Of a DNA stretch of 64,000 nt, positions 15,777 through 25,530 are shown piece by piece. Source of the DNA: Ralstonia pickettii (GTDB taxonomy: Bacteria > Pseudomonadota > Gammaproteobacteria > Burkholderiales > Burkholderiaceae). The stretch's first letter is position 1; each line of letters begins with the position of its first letter. The stretch spans positions 62,001 to 126,000 of the forward strand of contig NZ_JFZG01000011.1 in assembly GCF_000607165.1 (NCBI RefSeq), in the 5' to 3' direction. The notes beneath the pieces are model-generated. The model was not told the DNA's origin. It ran no database searches and saw only the letters and a program-made list of their open reading frames with translations. The position numbers and the translations under genes were made by a program.

Positions 15777-16511
15777 ATGGCGCACGCCCAGCAACGCAGG
15801 GCGCTCAGCGGCCCTGCGCTGATCCGCATTCTTGCTCGCCTGACGGACGTCGACGTTTCCGCATCCGCGCAGCCCCTCTCAGACCGGTTGAGCCAATGGC
15901 TCAGTTGGACGGATGCCATCACGCTTTCGTCGGCACTGAGCGCGGCACCGCCCGCCATTGCGTCCAGCACGCGGCCCGTCGGCCCGGACGCCGAGACCAT
16001 CGGTAGCCGTGTCCGCGCAGCGCTGACGAAGTCCATCGCGTCCAGTTGCGCGCCCGATGCCAGGACGGGCCCACGCGCGCCGATCCAGAGCCCCTCGGCG
16101 CCGCTGGTGGTCGACTATGCCGATTTTCGGCAGCGCTACGTGCTGATGCAGCAGACGATGGAGCTGGAGATCAGTGACCTGCGTGGCCGCCTGCGGCGCT
16201 TGCTGGCAGCCAGGACGCCCGACCTCGCGCGCCTCGCGGTATTGGACGCCAGCATGGAGCAGGCGCTCGCGGGCCGCGAACGTTCGTTGCTGGGGACCAT
16301 TCCGTCGATGCTGGGGCCGTACTTCGAGCGCTTGCGCACGGCCGAGCAGCAGCGGCAGGCCGAGTTGCCTGCAGAGGGCCAAGCCACCCAATCCACATCC
16401 CGCGCCTGGCTGGATGCGTTCCGCAAGGATATGCAGAGCGTGCTCCTGGCCGAGCTTGATGTTCGTTTTCAACCGGTCGACGGGTTGCTTGCAGCCCTTC
16501 GCCCCCGCTAA
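15777..16511 (+). CDS. DUF3348 family protein, first gene of stator-like cluster
   Basis: A 244-residue soluble protein. The N-terminal block RALSGPALIRILARLTDVDV is followed by a low-complexity linker. A helical C-terminal half (DFRQRYVLMQQTMELEISDLRGRLRRLL ... WLDAFRKDMQSVLLAEL) matches my memory of DUF3348, a family found next to DUF802 genes in Burkholderiales. Function is unknown. It is followed after 18 bp by the MotA-like DUF802 gene, so it is probably a cytoplasmic partner or assembly factor of that membrane complex. Confidence 0.78.
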   Translation: MAHAQQRRALSGPALIRILARLTDVDVSASAQPLSDRLSQWLSWTDAITLSSALSAAPPAIASSTRPVGPDAETIGSRVRAALTKSIASSCAPDARTGPRAPIQSPSAPLVVDYADFRQRYVLMQQTMELEISDLRGRLRRLLAARTPDLARLAVLDASMEQALAGRERSLLGTIPSMLGPYFERLRTAEQQRQAELPAEGQATQSTSRAWLDAFRKDMQSVLLAELDVRFQPVDGLLAALRPR

Positions 16512-16529
16512 GCGGGACAGACACCATTC

Positions 16530-18836
16530 ATGTCCAGACTTCACCTGAATCTCATCGTTTTCTTTGTCGGGCTGGCGGCCTTGGGGTGGATTGCCGGCGG
16601 TTACCTCGTTGGCGGAAATCTGCTGGCGCTGGCTGTCACGCTTGTGATTGGTGCCGCCTACGTGGCTGGCGCCCTGGAACTGCGCCGCTATCGACACGCC
16701 ACGGGCACGGTCACGCAGGCCGTGGCGGGGCTGTCCGAGCCACCGCCCAAGCTGTCTGCCTGGCTGGAACAGCTGCACCCGAGCCTGCGCAATGCCGTGC
16801 GCCTGCGCGTGGAAGGCGAACGCGTTGCACTGCCTGCGCCCGCGTTGACGCCGTATCTGGTGGGCCTGCTGGTGCTGCTCGGCATGCTGGGCACGCTGCT
16901 TGGCATGGTGGTGACGCTCAAGGGCACGGGCGCGGCGCTGGAGAGCGCGACGGATTTGCAGGCGATCCGCGCATCGCTTGCTGCCCCGATCAAGGGGTTG
17001 GGATTCTCGTTCGGTACCTCGATTGCCGGTGTGGCGACGTCCGCCATGCTGGGGTTGCTCTCGGCGCTGTGCCGGCGCGAGCGGCTGCAGGCAGTCCAGG
17101 CGCTCGACGCAAAGATCGCGACCACGTTGCGCATCTATTCGCACGCGCATCAGCGTGAAGAGATGTTCAAGCTTCTGCAGCGACAATCCGATGTGATGCC
17201 CGCGCTGGTTGACCGGCTGCAGGCGATGATGCTGTCGCTGGAACAGCAGGGCGCGGCCAGCAGCGAGCGGCAGATCGCTGCCCAGCAGGCATTTCTCGAT
17301 AAGACGGAAGCCGCCTACAGCCAGCTTGCTTCCTCGGTTGGCGAGTCCCTGAAGGACAGTGCCGCCGAAAGCGCACGCGTTGCCAGCGCCGCGCTGCAGC
17401 CTGTGGTGGAAACGACGATGGCTGGCCTCGCGCGTGAATCGGCCGCGCTGCAGGAGACGGTCACGCACGCGGTGCAGCGTCAGCTCGACGGCCTGTCGAC
17501 CCGCTTTGAAGCCACGGCCGAGACGGTTTCCGGCATCTGGAACAACGCCTTGTCGGCGCATCAACGCTCCAGCGAAGCGCTGGTTGGCCAGGTCGGCACC
17601 TCGCTCGACCGGTTTGCTGAAACATTCGAGCAGCGCTCTGCGCGGTTGCTCGATGGCGTTACCGACCGACTGGACGCCACGGCAGGCGGCTTGGCCGCTG
17701 CCTGGCGTGATGCGCTTGCCCGGCAAGAACACGCCCACACCGAACTGGCCGTCCAGAACCAGCGCGCGCTGGAGGCCGCTGCCGCCACGTTCGAGCAACA
17801 CGCCGTGTCGTTGCAGGATGCGTCGCGCCAGTCGCATGCCGCGCTGCAAGCCGCGCTGGAAGCACGAGACGCGCAACGTCTGGCTGTCTGGACCGAGGCG
17901 CTCAGCGCAACGGGCGAGAAGCTGAGCCAGGCGTGGGAGAAAGCGGGCGCCGATACGGCCAATCGTCAACAGGACATCTGCAATGCGCTGGCGCAGACCG
18001 CGCGCGATATCGCTTTGCAGCAAGAGGCGTCGCGCCAGTCGCATGCCACGCTGCAAGCCGCCCTGGAAGCGCGCGACGCGCAACGTTTGGCGGCCTGGAC
18101 CGATGCACTCGGCGCGATGGGCGCCAAGCTGAGCGAGGTGTGGGAAAAAACAGGCGCCGATACGGCAAGCCGTCAGCAACAGATTTGCGATGCACTGGCG
18201 CAAACCGCGCGCGACATCTCTGCGCAAACGCAGGCGCACGCCAACAACACGATCAGCGAGATTTCTCGCCTGGTACAGGCTGCATCGGAAGCGCCCAAGG
18301 CTGCGGCCGAAGTGGTGGCCGAGCTGCGCCAGAAGCTGTCCGACAGCATGGTGCGCGATACCGCGATGCTGGACGAGCGTGCGCGCCTGCTTGGCACGCT
18401 GGAAACATTGCTCGACGCTGTCAACCATGCATCGACCGAGCAGCGCACAGCGGTGGATGCGCTGGTGGCAACGTCCGCAGATCTGCTGGAGCGCGTGGGC
18501 GTGCGATTCACCGATCGGGTGGAAGCCGAGACCGGCAAGCTCGGCGCGGTGGCCGCGCAGGTGACCGGCAGCGCCGTCGAGGTGGCCAGCCTGGGCGAGG
18601 CGTTTGGTGTGGCCGTGCAGCTGTTTGGTGAGTCGAACGACAAGCTTGCGGCGCAACTGCAGCGCATTGAAGCGGCGCTCGACAAGTCGCTCACGCGCAG
18701 CGACGAACAGCTTGCCTACTACGTGGCGCAGGCGCGTGAGGTGATCGACCTGAGCATGCTGTCCCAAAAGCAGATTCTGGAAGACCTGCAACGGCTGGGT
18801 GACCAGCGCGCGCTGGCCGGGACCGAAGCGGCATGA
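16530..18836 (+). CDS. DUF802 membrane protein, MotA/ZorA-like stator subunit with long helical tail
   Basis: A 768-residue protein. Two N-terminal membrane helices (about 5-25 and 29-49) come first. After a cytoplasmic loop come two more helices (about 108-130, VGLLVLLGMLGTLLGMVVTL, and about 152-177, GLGFSFGTSIAGVATSAMLG). The GTLLGM and FGTSIAG patterns are those of TM3 and TM4 in MotA, TolQ, ExbB and ZorA. Nearly 600 residues of Ala/Gln/Glu-rich, mostly coiled-coil sequence follow, as in the cytoplasmic tail of ZorA. A 69-residue unit is tandemly duplicated within the tail. Its stop overlaps the MotB-like gene by 4 bp. It is known as DUF802, and the stator role is my inference. Confidence 0.8.
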   Translation: MSRLHLNLIVFFVGLAALGWIAGGYLVGGNLLALAVTLVIGAAYVAGALELRRYRHATGTVTQAVAGLSEPPPKLSAWLEQLHPSLRNAVRLRVEGERVALPAPALTPYLVGLLVLLGMLGTLLGMVVTLKGTGAALESATDLQAIRASLAAPIKGLGFSFGTSIAGVATSAMLGLLSALCRRERLQAVQALDAKIATTLRIYSHAHQREEMFKLLQRQSDVMPALVDRLQAMMLSLEQQGAASSERQIAAQQAFLDKTEAAYSQLASSVGESLKDSAAESARVASAALQPVVETTMAGLARESAALQETVTHAVQRQLDGLSTRFEATAETVSGIWNNALSAHQRSSEALVGQVGTSLDRFAETFEQRSARLLDGVTDRLDATAGGLAAAWRDALARQEHAHTELAVQNQRALEAAAATFEQHAVSLQDASRQSHAALQAALEARDAQRLAVWTEALSATGEKLSQAWEKAGADTANRQQDICNALAQTARDIALQQEASRQSHATLQAALEARDAQRLAAWTDALGAMGAKLSEVWEKTGADTASRQQQICDALAQTARDISAQTQAHANNTISEISRLVQAASEAPKAAAEVVAELRQKLSDSMVRDTAMLDERARLLGTLETLLDAVNHASTEQRTAVDALVATSADLLERVGVRFTDRVEAETGKLGAVAAQVTGSAVEVASLGEAFGVAVQLFGESNDKLAAQLQRIEAALDKSLTRSDEQLAYYVAQAREVIDLSMLSQKQILEDLQRLGDQRALAGTEAA
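17821..18234 (+). repeat. tandem 207-bp in-frame repeat in the tail of the DUF802 gene
   Basis: There are two consecutive 207-bp units (17821-18027 and 18028-18234), encoding about residues 431-499 and 500-568. Each begins with ASRQSHAxLQAALEARDAQR and ends with ICxALAQTARDI. The two copies are nearly identical over most of their length in protein and DNA. This looks like a relatively recent duplication that lengthens the coiled-coil tail by one whole unit. Confidence 0.85.
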
Positions 18837-19504
18837 GTGACGAGATTGACGGCAGCGTAGATGGCGCAGGTGGCATTGAGGCCACCGCACCGGTTTGGGC
18901 CGCGTTTGGTGACCTGATGTCGGTGTTGCTGGGCGCGTTTGTGCTGATTCTGGTGGGCGTGATCGGCGTGCAGCTGGAGCTGTCGTCCAAGCTGGAGAGC
19001 GAGGTCAAGCAGCGCGAGGCCGAGGCGCAGCGCCGCAAGACGCTGGAGCAGGCGCTTGCTGGCCCGCTGGCGGCCGGGCGCGTGACGCTCGTCAACGGGC
19101 GTATCGGCATCAATGGCAATGTGCTGTTCGCGATCAACTCCGATCAGCTGCAGCCCGAGGGCCGCACGCTGATGAAGAGCCTCGCGGGGCCGTTGGCGGC
19201 GTATCTCACGTCGCGTGAAGAGATCCTGATGGTGAGCGGGTTCTCCGACGATCAGCAGGTACGTGCCGGCAACCGCTTGTTCGCAGATAACTGGGAGCTG
19301 TCCGCCAAGCGCGCCTTGACCGTGACGCGCGCCCTGATTGACGAAGGCATTCCCGCCTCCAGCGTGTTTGCGGCAGCGTTTGGTTCGCAGCAGCCCGTGA
19401 GTTCCAATGCGGACGACGTTGGCCGTGCGAAGAACCGGCGTGTGGAGATCGCGCCGGTTCCAAGGCAGGCCGCTTCCAACGGTGGACGCCGTGAGCCGCA
19501 CTGA
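18833..19504 (+). CDS. MotB/ZorB-like OmpA-domain stator subunit
   Basis: A 223-residue protein with a short cytoplasmic N-terminus and a single membrane helix (about 21-45). The helix contains WAAFGDLMSVLLGAF, placing Asp27 where MotB and ZorB carry the ion-binding aspartate (compare YADLMTLLLxFF). A short helical linker follows, then an OmpA-type peptidoglycan-binding domain with NVLFAINSDQLQPEG, NWELSAKRALTV and GRAKNRRVEI. These are the residues expected to hold the cell wall. It is coupled to the DUF802 gene by a 4-bp overlap. Together they have the minimal parts of an ion-driven, wall-anchored 5:2-type stator. Confidence 0.85.
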   Translation: MSDEIDGSVDGAGGIEATAPVWAAFGDLMSVLLGAFVLILVGVIGVQLELSSKLESEVKQREAEAQRRKTLEQALAGPLAAGRVTLVNGRIGINGNVLFAINSDQLQPEGRTLMKSLAGPLAAYLTSREEILMVSGFSDDQQVRAGNRLFADNWELSAKRALTVTRALIDEGIPASSVFAAAFGSQQPVSSNADDVGRAKNRRVEIAPVPRQAASNGGRREPH

Positions 19505-20123
19505 TTTGTCCACGCAAGCCATGCTCGACAGTTGGCGCGCAAGCGGCGCGGACCGGCTGAACCGCGTGCGCTTTTGCTTCATCGAGGCGCTTCATCGGCG
19601 CACGTCCGGTCAAACCGGCGAGGCGCGGCGCATGCTCGAAGCGCGGTTGGGCGAACTCGTCGCGGCCTATGCGGGCGATGTCGATCGCGCGAAGGCGGCG
19701 TCCGTTTCGTCCGACTCAGATGCGCCTGCCGGCAGCGCGTTGGCCGAACTGCTGCGTGACATTGCCAGCCGTGAACGCATGGATGTCGGCGACGCTGCGA
19801 ATGGCGGTTCAGCGCGGCATCTGCACACATTGCCGGACCTGAAGATTCTCGAAGACGTGCGGGACACCTGGTCCCGCGTCAGCGCCGAAAAACAGTTGCG
19901 CGACGCCTTGGAGAAGGTGCCGGTGAATGCGGGTCCGCTGAATTCGAGCAGTCTTGTGCATCGGTCACTGCTATTGATGCGCGAGGTAGCACCCGATTAT
20001 CTGCGGCAGTTTTTGTCGTATGTCGATGCGCTTTCCTGGCTGGAACGCATGAGCGGGGACGGGGCCGCCGGTGGCCACGAGGGTGCCCGCAGCGGCGGAA
20101 AGGCGCGGGGTAAGGCGCGCTAG
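19491..20123 (+). CDS. DUF2894 family protein, last gene of stator-like cluster
   Basis: A 210-residue soluble protein from a GTG at 19491, overlapping the MotB-like stop by 14 bp. It shows WRASGADRLNRVRFCFIEALHRR near the start. A central helical part holds DVRDTWSRVSAEKQLRDALE, and VHRSLLLMREVAPDYLRQFLSYVDAL lies near the end. The tail is Gly/Lys/Arg-rich (GGKARGKAR). I recognise this as the DUF2894 family, found with DUF3348 and DUF802. No enzymatic motif is visible. The longer ORF from 19407 would overlap the upstream gene by 98 bp and is unlikely. Confidence 0.75.
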   Translation: MSRTDLSTQAMLDSWRASGADRLNRVRFCFIEALHRRTSGQTGEARRMLEARLGELVAAYAGDVDRAKAASVSSDSDAPAGSALAELLRDIASRERMDVGDAANGGSARHLHTLPDLKILEDVRDTWSRVSAEKQLRDALEKVPVNAGPLNSSSLVHRSLLLMREVAPDYLRQFLSYVDALSWLERMSGDGAAGGHEGARSGGKARGKAR

Positions 20124-20675: not shown

Positions 20676-20867
20676 AGTGAGAATAGATGGTTGGGTAAAG
20701 TTGACCATTCAATGGAAGCGACGCCTGTGCAGCGCGCTTCGAGCAAGCATAGCAAAGGTTCGGCACCGTGGAGGCGTTATCTACGCTGTTCGGGGGCCAG
20801 GGAACGCTTATTGCATACGGTTTGGTCGTTCATCAACCAACTGAAGCGTCCCAGGTTCAGCACAGAC

Positions 20868-22070
20868 ATGCCCCAACGAAAATCGTCGCGCAGCGTGGTG
20901 AGCCCCAAAAACCGCGCGCCCGTACTCGCCCGGCTGCGTCAATCCAAGATGACGCGTTCGACTCATGCGTACGTTCGCGGCAGCACCGTGAAGTTTTACG
21001 AGTGGCTGAGCGAGGTGCAGCCGCACACCTTCCCGGAGGGGCCCGTCATCTGGATTTGCGGCGATTGCCATGTCGGTAACCTCGGCCCCATTGGCGATGC
21101 CTCCGGCGCCACGCGCATACAAATCCGGGATCTGGACCAGACGGTGCTTGGTAATCCCGCGCACGACCTGATTCGGCTTGGCGTGTCGCTGGCGACGGCC
21201 GCTCGCGGGTCAGACCTCCCGGGCATCGTGACCGCACGAATGGTGGAAGCGCTGATGGCGGGCTATCTGCACGGCATCGATCCGGATGCGGCGCTGCACC
21301 TGCCGCCGCGCCCCGCCTCCGTGCGTACCGCCATGAAGGCGGCGACTGCGCGTACGTGGAAACAGTTGGCCCAGGAGCGGCTCGATGGCACGTCTCCGTC
21401 CATTCCTCTGGGGCGCCATTTTTGGCCGCTCTCTCGCGAAGAACGGCGCGAATTGAAACAACTCGTGAGCCAGCACGAGGTGCTTGCCTTGGTGGCGCGC
21501 CTTTACGAGATGCCCGGGGAAGCCTCGGTCAGCATCGTGGATGCGGCGTACTGGGTCAAAGGGTGCAGCTCGCTCGGGCAGCGGCGTTATGCCGCCTTGC
21601 TCGCGGTCGACCAGGATCGCGGGCCGCGGTATCGGCTGATCGACATCAAGGAGGCGGGGAAGGCTGCAGCGCCCAGTGCCTCAGCAGGCGAGATGCCCCG
21701 GATCAACGGCGAGCGCGTGGTCACAGGTGCGCGCCGTCTCTCTCCCGACCTGGGCGATCGCATGGCATGGGGGCGCATGCTGGGTAGCAGCTTTTTCATG
21801 CGCGAACTTCAACCGCAAGATCTGAAGCTGTCTGTCGACAAGCTGGAGCACAAGGACGCCACGGTATTGGCTGCTTATCTGGGCAATATCGTGGGCCTCG
21901 CACACGGCAGCCAGATGCCGCGAGATGTCGCCATGGCCTGGCACCGTGAGCTGAAGGCGCGTCACGGACGGTCCATCAATGCGCCGTTCTGGCTGTGGTC
22001 TTCGATTGTCGACTTGCTCGGGCTGCACGAGCGCCAGTATCTTGAGCACTGTCGCGCCTGGGCCAATTGA
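20868..22070 (+). CDS. DUF2252 family protein (kinase-like fold suspected)
   Basis: A 400-residue protein. The family signature is visible: FYEWLSEVQP near the start, then WICGDCHVGNLGPIGD and IRDLDQTVLGNPAHDLIRL. The GDCHVGN and RDLDQ pairs resemble the catalytic loop (HGDxHxGN) and metal-binding loop of aminoglycoside phosphotransferase-like kinases, so an ATP-dependent phosphotransfer is plausible but unproven. The start at 20868 (MPQRKSSRS) is where similarity begins. A much longer in-frame ORF from 20238 runs antisense through the HU gene and is not real. It stands alone. Confidence 0.8.
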   Translation: MPQRKSSRSVVSPKNRAPVLARLRQSKMTRSTHAYVRGSTVKFYEWLSEVQPHTFPEGPVIWICGDCHVGNLGPIGDASGATRIQIRDLDQTVLGNPAHDLIRLGVSLATAARGSDLPGIVTARMVEALMAGYLHGIDPDAALHLPPRPASVRTAMKAATARTWKQLAQERLDGTSPSIPLGRHFWPLSREERRELKQLVSQHEVLALVARLYEMPGEASVSIVDAAYWVKGCSSLGQRRYAALLAVDQDRGPRYRLIDIKEAGKAAAPSASAGEMPRINGERVVTGARRLSPDLGDRMAWGRMLGSSFFMRELQPQDLKLSVDKLEHKDATVLAAYLGNIVGLAHGSQMPRDVAMAWHRELKARHGRSINAPFWLWSSIVDLLGLHERQYLEHCRAWAN

Positions 22071-22258: not shown

Positions 22259-22918
22259 CTAGCTGGGCAGCGGCCAGACTCGGTTGTCAGCCACCCCATA
22301 GAGCGCTTCGCCCGGCGCAACGGGTGCGGTCCACAAGCCCGTGAACTCGCCGAAGGCGGGTAGCAGTGCGCCGGTTGACCCAAAGCGGAAGCACGGCAGC
22401 CGGAGCCGATCCTTTCCGCGCCCGCTGATGACAATGCCCGGGTGCACGTGGCCGGCGATGACGTAGCGATTGGCCACCACTTGCGGCTCATGGCATAGGG
22501 CGAAGGGGCCGATTGCCCACGGTTCTTCCACCACGTTGAAGCGCAGGTCCGCAGGCGGGTCGCCCGCATGGCGGTCGTGGTTGCCGCGGACCAGCGTGCA
22601 GGCTACGTCGGCGTGTCGTGTGCGCCAGGCGACGAGCGCGTCGATTGCTGCGTGCGCCTCGCGGGCGTGGAGCAGATCGCCCAGCCACGCGATATGTGAG
22701 ACTGGCAATCGCGCCAGCATGGCATCCAGCCGAGCGATCGCCTGGACGGTGCCTCCGGTGGGCACGGGCACGCCGCGCGCACGGAAGGTTGCCGCCTTGC
22801 CGAAGTGCGCATCGGCCACCATCAGCATGCGTTGCGCGGGCCACCACAGCGCGCGCTCGGGCAGGAGCCATACGGTCTCGCCCGCGCACTGGATGACGAG
22901 GTCTTGGGGAGCGGTCAT
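22259..22918 (-). CDS. pdeM: ligase-associated DNA damage response endonuclease PdeM
   Basis: A 219-residue metallophosphoesterase. The metal ligands are visible in order: [20 protein letters not shown] (DxH), [12 protein letters not shown] (GD), [10 protein letters not shown] (GNHD), and the late [12 protein letters not shown] (GHxH). This is the pattern of the PdeM branch of calcineurin-like nucleases, which travel with an LigD-unrelated ATP-dependent ligase. It is the last gene of the four-gene repair operon, and the helicase stop overlaps its start by 4 bp. Confidence 0.9.
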
Positions 22919-25530
22919 AGCAGTGGGAGCGGCTTCGATGTCTTGCGTGGCCTGCGGGTGCGGCGGCCGGATTTGCCCGCTGTGTCGGGCGATTCAGTCA
23001 AGCGCAACGCGGCCTGTACGTCTGCGTCAATCGCCGGCCGTGTTGCGGCATCCGGGTCGGACGGCTCGGGGCCTGCGGCACGCTCGGCTTCGGCCAGCAT
23101 GCGCGCGATCCGATCCGCCAGTTTCTCGGTCGAGAGCTGCTCGCGAAAACGCTCCACCATCAACGGAAAGCCGAACGGCGAAGGCCGGGTCAGTGCGCAC
23201 AGTTCAAGCCGCAAACCGCGCATGCGGATGAGGGCAGATTCAATGCGGTCGAGGTCCAGCTCCTGGCGCAGCACTTCGGTTTCCGCCTGCGAGAGCAGCA
23301 GGTTGCCCGGGTCGTGGCGCCGGAAGACTTCATAGAACAGGCCGGACGATGCCTGCAACTGGCGCGTGCTCTTGTGCGCGCCAGGGTAGCCCTGGAACAC
23401 CAGCCCCGATACGCGTGCGATCTCACGAAAACGGCGTTGCGCCAGTTCTCCGGCGTTGAGGCTGGCCAGCACATCCTGCATGAGCGTGTGGGTGGAAAAG
23501 AGTTCGCCGGTGGCCAGCAACGCGGGCCAGTCGATGGGCGTGGCCGACAGGAGTTCGAGGCCGTAGTCGTTGAACGCCAGGGAGAAAGTGGCTGGCGTGC
23601 GATTGGCGGCGCGCCAGCCCAGCAAGCTTGCCAGCCCCAGGTGCGCATGCCGCCCGGCAAACGGGTAGAGAAAGAGATGCCAGCCCTCGCGGGAGTGCAG
23701 AGTCTCGGCCACCAGCGTTGCCGTGGTGGGCAGCGCAGACCAGCGCGCCTGCAGTTCCAGCAGCGGGCGTGCGGCTTCCATTTCGGGGCTGTCGAAACGC
23801 GCATGTGCCGCCGCATCGAGCTGCGCGACCACCGCGTGCGCCAGCTCGGTGGAAAGCGGCATGCGACCACCGTTCCAGCGCGGCACGGCAGCGCGTTTGC
23901 CGGTGGCACGCCGCACATAGGCCGTCATGTCCTGCACGCGCACCAGTTCCAGCAGGCGGCCCGCAAACAGAAAGTTGTCGCCGGGGCGCAGCCGCGCAAT
24001 GAAACCCTCCTCGATCGACCCCAACGCACCGCCGCCGGAAGCACGCCACCAGCGCACCGTCATCGTTGCATCGCTGACGATGGTGCCGATGCTCATGCGG
24101 TGCCGCCGTGCGAGCCGTGCATCGGGCACGCGCCAGATGCCATGTTCATCCGGCATGACGCGGTGGTAGTCGGGATATGCGGTGAGCGAGTGGCCGCCCT
24201 GCCGCACGAAGTCGAGCGCCCATTGCCACTCGTCGTCGCGCAAATCTCGGTAAGCCCATGCGCGGCGCACTTCCTCCAACAGCGCGTCGGGCACGAAGCC
24301 GCCGCCCAGCGCCACCGTCACCAGATGCTGGACCAGCACATCGAGCGGCTTGTGCGGTGAGGTGCGGGCTTCCACCTGGCCCGACATGGCGGCTGCGCGT
24401 GCGGCTGCGCCTTCCACGAGTTCAAGGCTATGCGTGGGCACCACCGTCACGCGAGAGGGCCGGCCCGGCGCGTGGCCCGATCGCCCGGCACGCTGCAAGA
24501 GCCGCGCCACGCCCTTGGGCGAGCCAATCTGCAGTACGCGTTCCACTGGCAGAAAGTCGACGCCCAAATCCAGGCTTGACGTGCAGAACACCGCCTTGAG
24601 CATGCCTTGCTTGAGCCCGGTCTCCACCCAGTCACGCGTTGTGCGGTCCAGTGAGCCATGATGCAACGCGATCAACCCCGCCCATTCCGGTCGCGCAGTG
24701 ATGACGGCCTGGTACCACAGCTCCGCTTGCGAGCGCGTGTTGAGAAACACCAGCGCGGTGCGGGCACTTTCCAGCTCTTCCAGCACGTGGGGCAGCATCG
24801 CCATACCCAGGTGCCCGGCCCAAGGAAATCGGCCCACACCATCGGGCAGCAGCGTATCGATCTCCATGCGCTTGGGCAGGTGGCCTTGCACCAGCGTGCC
24901 GGCGGTGGGCGCCGCCGCATCGCCCAGTGCATCCATCGCTTCAGCCAGGTTGCCCAGCGTGGCGGAAAGTCCCCACACGACCAGCCCCGGTGACCACGTG
25001 CGCAGCCGCGCCAGCGCCAACTGCACCTGCACGCCGCGTTTGTTGCCCACCAGTTCGTGCCATTCATCGACGACGACCACGCGTACAGAGCCGAGGGCTT
25101 CACGCGCATCGGCGCGCGCGAGCAGCAACGACAGGCTCTCGGGCGTTGTCACCAGGGCGGTAGGCAAACGGCGCGATTGCGCGGCACGCTCGGCGCTGCC
25201 GGTGTCGCCGGTGCGCAGCCCGAGCGTCCAATGTGGCGCCAATGCCTGTGCGGCGTCGGTCAATGCGCGCGTGGTGTCGGCCGCCAGCGCGCGCATGGGC
25301 GTGAGCCACAGTACCGACAACGGCGGCGCGCCGCCGCGCCCGCGCACTTGCGCCAACCGTTGCAACGCACCGAGCCAGACGGCATAGGTTTTCCCCGCAC
25401 CCGTGGTGGCGTGCAGCAGGCCCGATTCGCCGCGCGCCATGGCCGACCACACGGCCCGCTGGAACGGCATCGGCGTCCAGTCGCGCGCGGCAAACCAGGC
25501 ATCAAGATCGGGCAGGGCAGGCTCGGTCAT
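22915..25530 (-). CDS. ligase-associated DNA damage response DEXH-box helicase (Lhr-like)
   Basis: An 871-residue superfamily 2 helicase. The motifs are Q-like [11 protein letters not shown], Walker [14 protein letters not shown], Walker [10 protein letters not shown] (DEWH), motif [12 protein letters not shown] and motif [12 protein letters not shown]. The Lhr-type core is followed by a long C-terminal region with Lhr-like winged-helix segments. It should unwind damaged or RNA-containing duplexes for the neighbouring nucleases. It overlaps the ligase gene upstream and pdeM downstream by 4 bp each. Confidence 0.92.

What the first reader, a model, noticed from the sequence alone, without database searches (positions are those of the whole stretch)
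15777..20123. MotAB/ZorAB-like stator encoded in a DUF3348-DUF802-OmpA-DUF2894 operon
DUF802 has the TM3/TM4 patterns of MotA/ExbB/ZorA (LGTLLGM, FGTSIAG) and a roughly 580-residue helical cytoplasmic tail. The next gene has one membrane helix with a MotB-position Asp (FGDLMSVLL) and a wall-binding OmpA domain. The pair looks like an ion-driven, peptidoglycan-anchored rotary stator, as in the anti-phage Zorya system. Here it has two uncharacterised partners (DUF3348, DUF2894) in place of the Zorya nuclease/helicase effectors. The genes are tightly spaced (18 bp, 4-bp overlap, 14-bp overlap). It may be a housekeeping envelope motor of Burkholderiales or a new defence or signalling module.
Basis: partly seen in the sequence, partly recalled or inferred. 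Interest (0 to 1): 0.85.

Follow-up and report, generated by a model that had tools for sequence, protein, structure and literature searches.

The report
Zorya type III phage-defence motor operon
These four genes are a known anti-phage system, Zorya type III, built around an ion-driven membrane motor; what is left to explain is how it works without any recognisable DNA-cutting part and why nearly every species of some genera keeps one copy.

Summary
PADLOC-DB names the four genes ZorG3, ZorA3, ZorB3, ZorF3 (E = 3.5e-91, 0, 4.5e-115, 8.4e-74): Zorya type III, described in 2021 with protection of E. coli against phages (PMC8565338, passages). The stator reading holds: the ZorB Asp is kept in 121 of 121 homologues; the ZorA profile matches PDB chain 8vvn_C (1.1e-5). 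Added here: (1) the four-gene order held in 40 of 40 fetched unnamed loci and 75 of 75 named loci where all four were found, of 80. (2) Marker genes are near-universal in some genera (DUF3348 64/64, 83/86, 47/54; DUF2894 15/15 in Ralstonia, the window's genus), yet the operon changes place and conflicts with the rpoB tree. (3) DUF3348 and DUF2894 models are all-helical without an enzyme match; the DUF2894 model is poor. (4) The ZorA tail is 11-residue-periodic and lengthens by in-frame tandem duplication. (5) DUF2894 evolves several times faster than its neighbours. Housekeeping use is not excluded.

The parts
15777..16511 (+). DUF3348 gene (ZorG3 in PADLOC-DB; called ZorF in the 2021 paper), 244 aa, all-helical model
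   Evidence: PADLOC ZorG3 3.5e-91; Pfam PF11828 2.2e-85; AlphaFold2 model pLDDT 80, pTM 0.77
16530..18836 (+). zorA3 (DUF802), MotA/ExbB-type stator subunit with long cytoplasmic tail, 768 aa
   Evidence: PADLOC ZorA3 E = 0, 1312.6 bits; profile A5 matches PDB chain 8vvn_C 1.1e-5
16848..16922 (+). ZorA TM3 region with LGMLGTLLGM (residues 107-131)
   Evidence: L117 G118 G121 T122 G125 T129 invariant in 26 aligned ZorA; boundaries by eye
16992..17072 (+). ZorA TM4 region with GFSFGTSIAG (residues 155-181)
   Evidence: G156 F161 G162 T163 S164 G167 S171 invariant in 26 aligned ZorA; boundaries by eye
17493..17813 (+). two DUF802 repeats in the ZorA tail
   Evidence: PF05650 at C11:79493-79651 and 79658-79813, that is window 17493-17651 and 17658-17813
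17814..18344 (+). 69-residue tandem duplication in the ZorA tail (residues 429-605)
   Evidence: self-match at shift 69, 56% identity over 108 residues; shift 69 is also the best in the other nine ZorA of 768 aa, while L046 and L122 (699 aa) have 55 as their best shift
18833..19504 (+). zorB3, one N-terminal membrane helix with Asp27 and a C-terminal OmpA/MotB-type domain, 223 aa
   Evidence: PADLOC ZorB3 4.5e-115; NCBIfam NF006547 4.8e-116; Asp conserved 121 of 121
18911..18913 (+). codon of the presumed ion-site Asp27 of ZorB
   Evidence: invariant D27 in 16; aligns with the Asp of the MotB helix in 8ucs_A in a 0.4-bit stretch only
19124..19438 (+). OmpA (peptidoglycan-binding type) domain of ZorB, residues 98-202
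   Evidence: Pfam PF00691 4.6e-18; D139, D152, N153, R160, N201, R202, R203 invariant in 16
19491..20123 (+). DUF2894 gene (ZorF3 in PADLOC-DB; called ZorG in the 2021 paper), 210 aa from the GTG start
   Evidence: PADLOC ZorF3 8.4e-74; Pfam PF11445 9.7e-57; AlphaFold2 model pLDDT 71, pTM 0.40, helices only
19926..20045 (+). most conserved stretch of DUF2894 (residues 146-185, NAGPLNSSSLVHRSL...)
   Evidence: N146 G148 P149 L150 N151 L155 M163 P168 Y170 F174 Y177 L181 invariant in 71

Best explanation
This is a Zorya type III anti-phage operon. Shown here: family identity of all four products, the stator motifs, the conserved Asp, the OmpA-type domain, the long helix-periodic tail, and the gene order. 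Shown by others for another type III system: it lowers plaquing in E. coli. Inferred: ZorA and ZorB form a 5:2 ion-driven motor in the inner membrane. When a phage perturbs the envelope, the ZorB periplasmic domains grip the wall, ions flow past Asp27, and the ZorA ring and its tail turn. Inferred, and specific to type III: DUF3348 and DUF2894 are helical adaptors docked on the stator or tail that convert this motion into a block of the incoming genome without a nuclease of their own, by holding it at the entry site, recruiting a host enzyme, or gating the motor. DUF2894, the fastest evolving part, with a variable middle between two conserved ends, is my candidate for the part facing the phage or its DNA.
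For: PADLOC type III models hit all four genes. ZorB Asp 121 of 121. ZorA profile matches 8vvn_C at 1.1e-5; ZorB profile matches MotB 3khn_A at 6.7e-18 and 8vvn_B at 1.3e-6. Order G-A-B-F in 40 of 40 fetched unnamed loci and in 75 of 75 named loci where all four were found, of 80 fetched. Type III from Stenotrophomonas nitritireducens in E. coli BL21-AI reduced plaquing of at least one phage tested (PMC8565338 passages). Types I and II are 5:2 motors; ion flow, wall binding and the tail matter for function (PMC11890865 passages). The tail has 11/3 helical periodicity. No enzyme fold matched for the two partners; no neighbour family recurs in more than 28 of 116 loci.
Against: A CRISPRi screen in Burkholderia cenocepacia K56-2, where Zorya III is predicted, found no predicted defence gene affecting infection by one phage (PMC12584637 passages). 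Near-universality within genera and a solitary position among metabolic and transport genes are unusual for an accessory defence system. A single-sequence search of the PDB with the window's ZorA finds no stator chain at E <= 0.1; only the profile does. No stoichiometry, ion flow or binding was tested. The DUF2894 model is of low confidence, so a small catalytic fold could be missed.
Confidence: 0.62

Rival explanations
1. It is mainly a resident envelope motor (wall or envelope maintenance, stress sensing) kept by nearly all species of some genera; the phage protection seen on expression in E. coli is a by-product or second use.
For: Among good assemblies DUF3348 is in 64/64, 83/86 and 47/54 species of three genera and DUF2894 in 15/15 of the window's genus, nearly always at one place per genome; neighbours show metabolic, transport and regulatory domains and no excess of defence models; ZorB dN/dS 0.01-0.08; knock-down had no effect on one phage.
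Against: Flanks are shared by at most 19% in 6 of 10 within-genus pairs whereas motB flanks are shared by 59-100% in 9 of 9; Zor proteins reject the Ralstonia+g3 clade of rpoB (p 0.0003) and the gammaproteobacterial clade (p 1.7e-5); no match in 328 of 349 species sampled across the order; fast evolution of DUF2894 and, less so, DUF3348.
Confidence: 0.22
2. The motor itself is the weapon: on infection DUF3348/DUF2894 unlock ZorAB as an ion leak and the cell stops or dies (abortive infection).
For: No catalytic fold matched in the partners; a proton-channel abortive mechanism was proposed for Zorya, as told by Payne et al., who suggest the two partners regulate ZorAB.
Against: No depolarisation was seen in the Zorya cells tested, types I and II (PMC11890865 passage); nothing here tests type III.
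Confidence: 0.12
3. A new nutrient-uptake or secretion energiser of the ExbBD/TolQR kind, unrelated to defence.
For: MotA/ExbB-type membrane motifs.
Against: The OmpA-type domain on ZorB, the type III PADLOC matches, no gene family fixed beside it and published phage protection.
Confidence: 0.03

Closest known systems
Zorya type III (PADLOC ZorA3-ZorB3-ZorF3-ZorG3; Payne et al. 2021, PMC8565338)
   Same: All four protein families and their co-location; PADLOC models cover most of each protein.
   Different: Nothing that sets the window apart as a type; its ZorA tail has a 69-residue duplication and is 70 residues longer than the commonest 698-residue form.
Zorya types I and II (ZorAB with ZorCD or ZorE)
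   Same: ZorA with TM3/TM4 motifs and long tail; ZorB with membrane Asp and OmpA-type domain; weak profile matches to ZorA1/ZorA2 and ZorB1/ZorB2.
   Different: No ZorC, ZorD helicase or ZorE nickase among the four; two helical proteins instead. NCBIfam ZorA_1 and ZorA_2 cut-offs are not reached.
MotAB flagellar stator
   Same: MotB-type periplasmic domain (3khn_A 6.7e-18) and Asp position.
   Different: Pfam MotA_ExbB only E 0.3; tail of about 580 residues; partners not flagellar; a MotB over its cut-off is encoded elsewhere in 16 of 18 relatives tested.

Membership tests
Zorya type III | ZorA3-type MotA/ExbB subunit | tested here: met
   PADLOC PDLC00650 E = 0
Zorya type III | ZorB3-type MotB subunit | tested here: met
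   PADLOC PDLC00651 4.5e-115; Asp 121 of 121
Zorya type III | DUF3348 protein | tested here: met
   PADLOC 3.5e-91, Pfam 2.2e-85
Zorya type III | DUF2894 protein | tested here: met
   PADLOC 8.4e-74, Pfam 9.7e-57
Zorya type III | four genes together in one operon-like cluster | tested here: met
   gaps 18, -4, -14; same order in 40 of 40 fetched unnamed loci and in 75 of 75 named loci where all four were found, of 80
Zorya type III | protection against phage | not testable with these tools
   shown by others for a Stenotrophomonas system (passages), not for this one
Zorya (all types) | ZorA5:ZorB2 ion-driven motor | not testable with these tools
   no complex prediction is offered; published for types I and II (passages)
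Zorya type I or II | ZorC/ZorD or ZorE effector in the operon | tested here: not met
   no such match among the four proteins; no family recurs beside the operon in more than 28 of 116 loci
Zorya type I or II | ZorA_1 / ZorA_2 NCBIfam cut-off | tested here: not met
   20.6 of 190 and 27.2 of 100 bits
MotAB flagellar stator | MotA_ExbB Pfam cut-off | tested here: not met
   11.3 of 22.9 bits
Known enzyme fold in DUF3348 or DUF2894 | confident structural match | tested here: inconclusive

The most novel reading that the evidence does not exclude
Zorya type III is not an ordinary accessory defence system but a near-core, single-copy entry guard of several genera that acts without any nuclease: a wall-gripping motor whose helical adaptors (DUF3348, DUF2894) mechanically stall or hand over the incoming genome, with tail reach tuned by tandem duplication in steps of mostly 51 to 87 residues.
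Probability: 0.2. Interest if true: 0.8.

Novelty: already known. Interest (0 to 1): 0.36.

Why it matters
The type is known, but its mechanism is open as far as I could see: in the library searched, two papers name DUF3348/DUF2894 or ZorF/ZorG, and the passages I read report no activity for them, only a proposal that they regulate ZorAB. Most subscription papers are not in that library. A motor-driven defence with no visible nuclease, kept in nearly every species of some genera, would be either a new way of blocking phage genomes or a defence module doubling as envelope machinery. The published system in a laboratory E. coli strain makes both testable.

Full report
Observation. The four genes, their coordinates, spacings, TM3/TM4 motifs, membrane Asp, OmpA domain and long tail are present as described.

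Identity. PADLOC-DB matches the four proteins, in order, to ZorG3 (3.5e-91), ZorA3 (E = 0, 1312.6 bits), ZorB3 (4.5e-115) and ZorF3 (8.4e-74). This is Zorya type III. In the passages I read, Payne et al. 2021 report 6,401 such loci beside 7,742 of types I and II, and that a system from Stenotrophomonas nitritireducens protects E. coli BL21-AI against at least one phage tested (PMC8565338). The paper text calls DUF3348 ZorF and DUF2894 ZorG; PADLOC-DB has them the other way round. Sub-threshold NCBIfam hits to ZorA_2 (1.9e-6) and ZorA_1 (1.2e-4) agree.

Stator features. A ZorA profile (26 sequences, residues 1-330) has as its best PDB match 8vvn_C (1.1e-5; an entry with five copies of that chain); the next, a tail fibre at 0.002, matches only the helical tail part. 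The ZorB profile matches MotB 3khn_A (6.7e-18) and 8vvn_B (1.3e-6, two copies). I take 8vvn to be a solved ZorAB complex; I did not read its paper. The window's ZorA alone finds no stator chain. The ZorB Asp is kept in 121 of 121 sequences and the two ZorA motifs in 116 and 117 of 121, with four ZorA frames cut by contig ends. The 5:2 assembly was not testable here.

Gene order. Of 80 named loci, found through ZorB, all four genes were found in 75, in three of them with DUF3348 cut by a contig end, and the order held in 75 of 75; the other 5 are cut short by a contig end.

Host. The nearest named loci are Ralstonia sp. NFACC01 and SET104 (ZorB 96% and 92%), which also share flanking genes with the window, so the window is Ralstonia; species not determined. 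Other genus codes (g3, g12, g186 and so on) are unnamed.

Distribution. DUF3348 is in 98 of 150 species of the family, 11 of 25 genera; of the 20 misses listed (of 52), 17 have genomes of 2.6 Mb or less. It is in 21 of 349 species sampled across the order and 20 of 398 across the phylum (20 and 19 over the cut-off) and in 0 of 14 control genomes. Among assemblies at least 90% complete and at most 5% contaminated, DUF3348 is in 64 of 64 species of g12, 83 of 86 of g186 and 47 of 54 of g3 (64 of 65, 87 of 91 and 51 of 60 of all), and DUF2894 in 15 of 15 (15 of 16) of the window's genus. These are one-marker counts, not whole operons. Second matches in one genome are mostly pieces of the same frame. 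For contrast, the type I ZorA model reaches its cut-off in 0 of 150 family genomes; 37 of 150 have weaker matches, several of them the type III ZorA itself. Conservation of type III Zorya within R. solanacearum has been printed (PMC13064858, passages); Mariano et al. call the spread of the Zorya subtypes typical of anti-phage systems (PMC11890865, passages). My genus-level counts fit the first better than the second.

Inheritance. In a tree of the joined Zor proteins (40 of 41 genomes) the window's genus is one clade, but the Ralstonia+g3 clade that rpoB supports at 100 is rejected (AU p 0.0003), as is a clade of the four gammaproteobacterial rows outside the order (p 1.7e-5, one of them on a very long branch); g12 gives p 0.036, and g25, g10 and f4 are not rejected. 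The groups were tested after seeing the tree, with a quick method. Flanks: in 10 within-genus pairs, operon flanks of 6 kb are shared on both sides in only 1 (two close Ralstonia), mainly on one side in 3 more (g3, g8, G024/G137), and by 0-19% in the other 6; motB flanks are shared by 59-100% in 9 of 9 pairs. motB sits in a long flagellar cluster, so this control is generous. Within Ralstonia the window's flanking genes are kept on both sides in 7 of 9 fetched loci, upstream only in one (L049), and not at all in one (L046). In four Ralstonia relatives with few contigs (G024, G067, G121, G137) the operon lies on a contig of 1.4-2.0 Mb and rpoB on one of 3.4-3.8 Mb; in some other genera both lie on one contig. 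So it is held by nearly all, but has moved and been exchanged.

Surroundings. Among the 131 nearest genes of 33 loci the commonest domains are transport, TonB receptor, LysR and other regulatory ones, each in at most 5 (first 25 of 125 families shown), with no excess of defence models. There is no recurring fifth gene. No relative was found in IMG/VR, and no good match in phage records; among plasmid records good matches lie only in those of 366 kb or more.

Partners. AlphaFold2 models of DUF3348 (pLDDT 80, pTM 0.77) and DUF2894 (pLDDT 71, pTM 0.40) contain helices only. No Foldseek match in the PDB reaches E 0.001, and VIA-align scores are within the stated noise for helical models. DUF2894 has a confident N-terminal helical part (residues 1-70), a variable middle (61-120) and a highly conserved end (146-185). 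Against 9 Ralstonia relatives dN/dS is 0.22-0.44 for DUF2894, 0.08-0.24 for DUF3348, 0.06-0.15 for ZorA and 0.01-0.08 for ZorB; for four neighbours, against 7 or 8 of them, it is 0.00-0.12. This is fast or relaxed evolution; positive selection is not shown.

Tail. In 29 ZorA of 695-701 residues, tail hydrophobicity (residues 211-640) peaks at a period of 3.66-3.68 residues (score 20.8 against at most 1.85 in 50 shuffles), the 11/3 repeat of hendecad coiled coils; the last 100 residues of that stretch peak at 3.58 instead; the window peaks at 3.66. Of 117 ZorA, 29 have that base length, 85 are longer and 3 shorter; the 116 with the membrane motif in place run from 627 to 1229 residues. The excess is largely tandem duplication with units of mostly 51, 58, 69, 80 or 87 residues; the window carries a 69-residue one. 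ZorA length thus varies almost twofold, which argues against a strict ruler. One search with tail and coiled-coil terms listed no paper on this among the 10 shown of 171.

Mechanism. In the passages read, wall binding by ZorB, ion flow and the ZorA tail matter in types I and II, and no depolarisation was seen; the hypothesis for type I is that injection brings the wall within reach of ZorB, which starts the motor and recruits the effectors (PMC12904381). For type III the last step is unknown. I favour helical adaptors that stall or hand over the incoming genome (inferred). A CRISPRi screen in B. cenocepacia found no effect of any predicted defence gene on one phage, though the first one or two genes of Zorya III changed expression (PMC12584637, passages); this counts against, weakly.

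Verdict. A real, correctly described operon of a known type. Its value lies in the open mechanism and in the unusual pattern of near-universality with relocation.

Noticed in passing
window 15879-18890, minus strand: A 1003-aa open frame lies antisense to DUF3348 and ZorA; high G+C makes such frames common and I take it to be spurious.
   Followed up: no
L043 upstream and L044 downstream of the operon: Compared with other Ralstonia, L043 has about 1.3 kb extra before DUF3348 and L044 about 1.1 kb extra after DUF2894, the size of an insertion sequence.
   Followed up: no
window 22259-25530, minus strand: A 219-aa phosphoesterase-like and an 871-aa DEAD/DEXH-helicase-like frame next to each other (labels by eye), which recur near the operon in Ralstonia; from memory they look like ligase-associated repair genes, not part of Zorya.
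   Followed up: no
window 20853-22070, plus strand: A DUF2252 protein (Pfam 8.2e-71) downstream of the operon; a relative also lies near the operon in Dyella locus L178.
   Followed up: no
G043 C2:342382-344043, G113 C34:222748-224433, G041 C28:6444-8174, G066 C15:13457-15166: Other ZorA-like proteins, below the type I cut-off: in G043 and G113 on other contigs than the type III operon, in G041 and G066 in genomes without a DUF3348 match.
   Followed up: no
control genome Corynebacterium glutamicum: The DUF2894 model rings over its cut-off in this Gram-positive control genome, where I expect no Zorya III.
   Followed up: no
G290 C1:1473838-1474245 (L029): A weak DUF3348 match (5.4e-6) inside a 460-aa frame in family f10, perhaps a distant or fused form.
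   Followed up: no
PADLOC-DB against PMC8565338: The names ZorF and ZorG are swapped between the paper text and the database models.
   Followed up: yes
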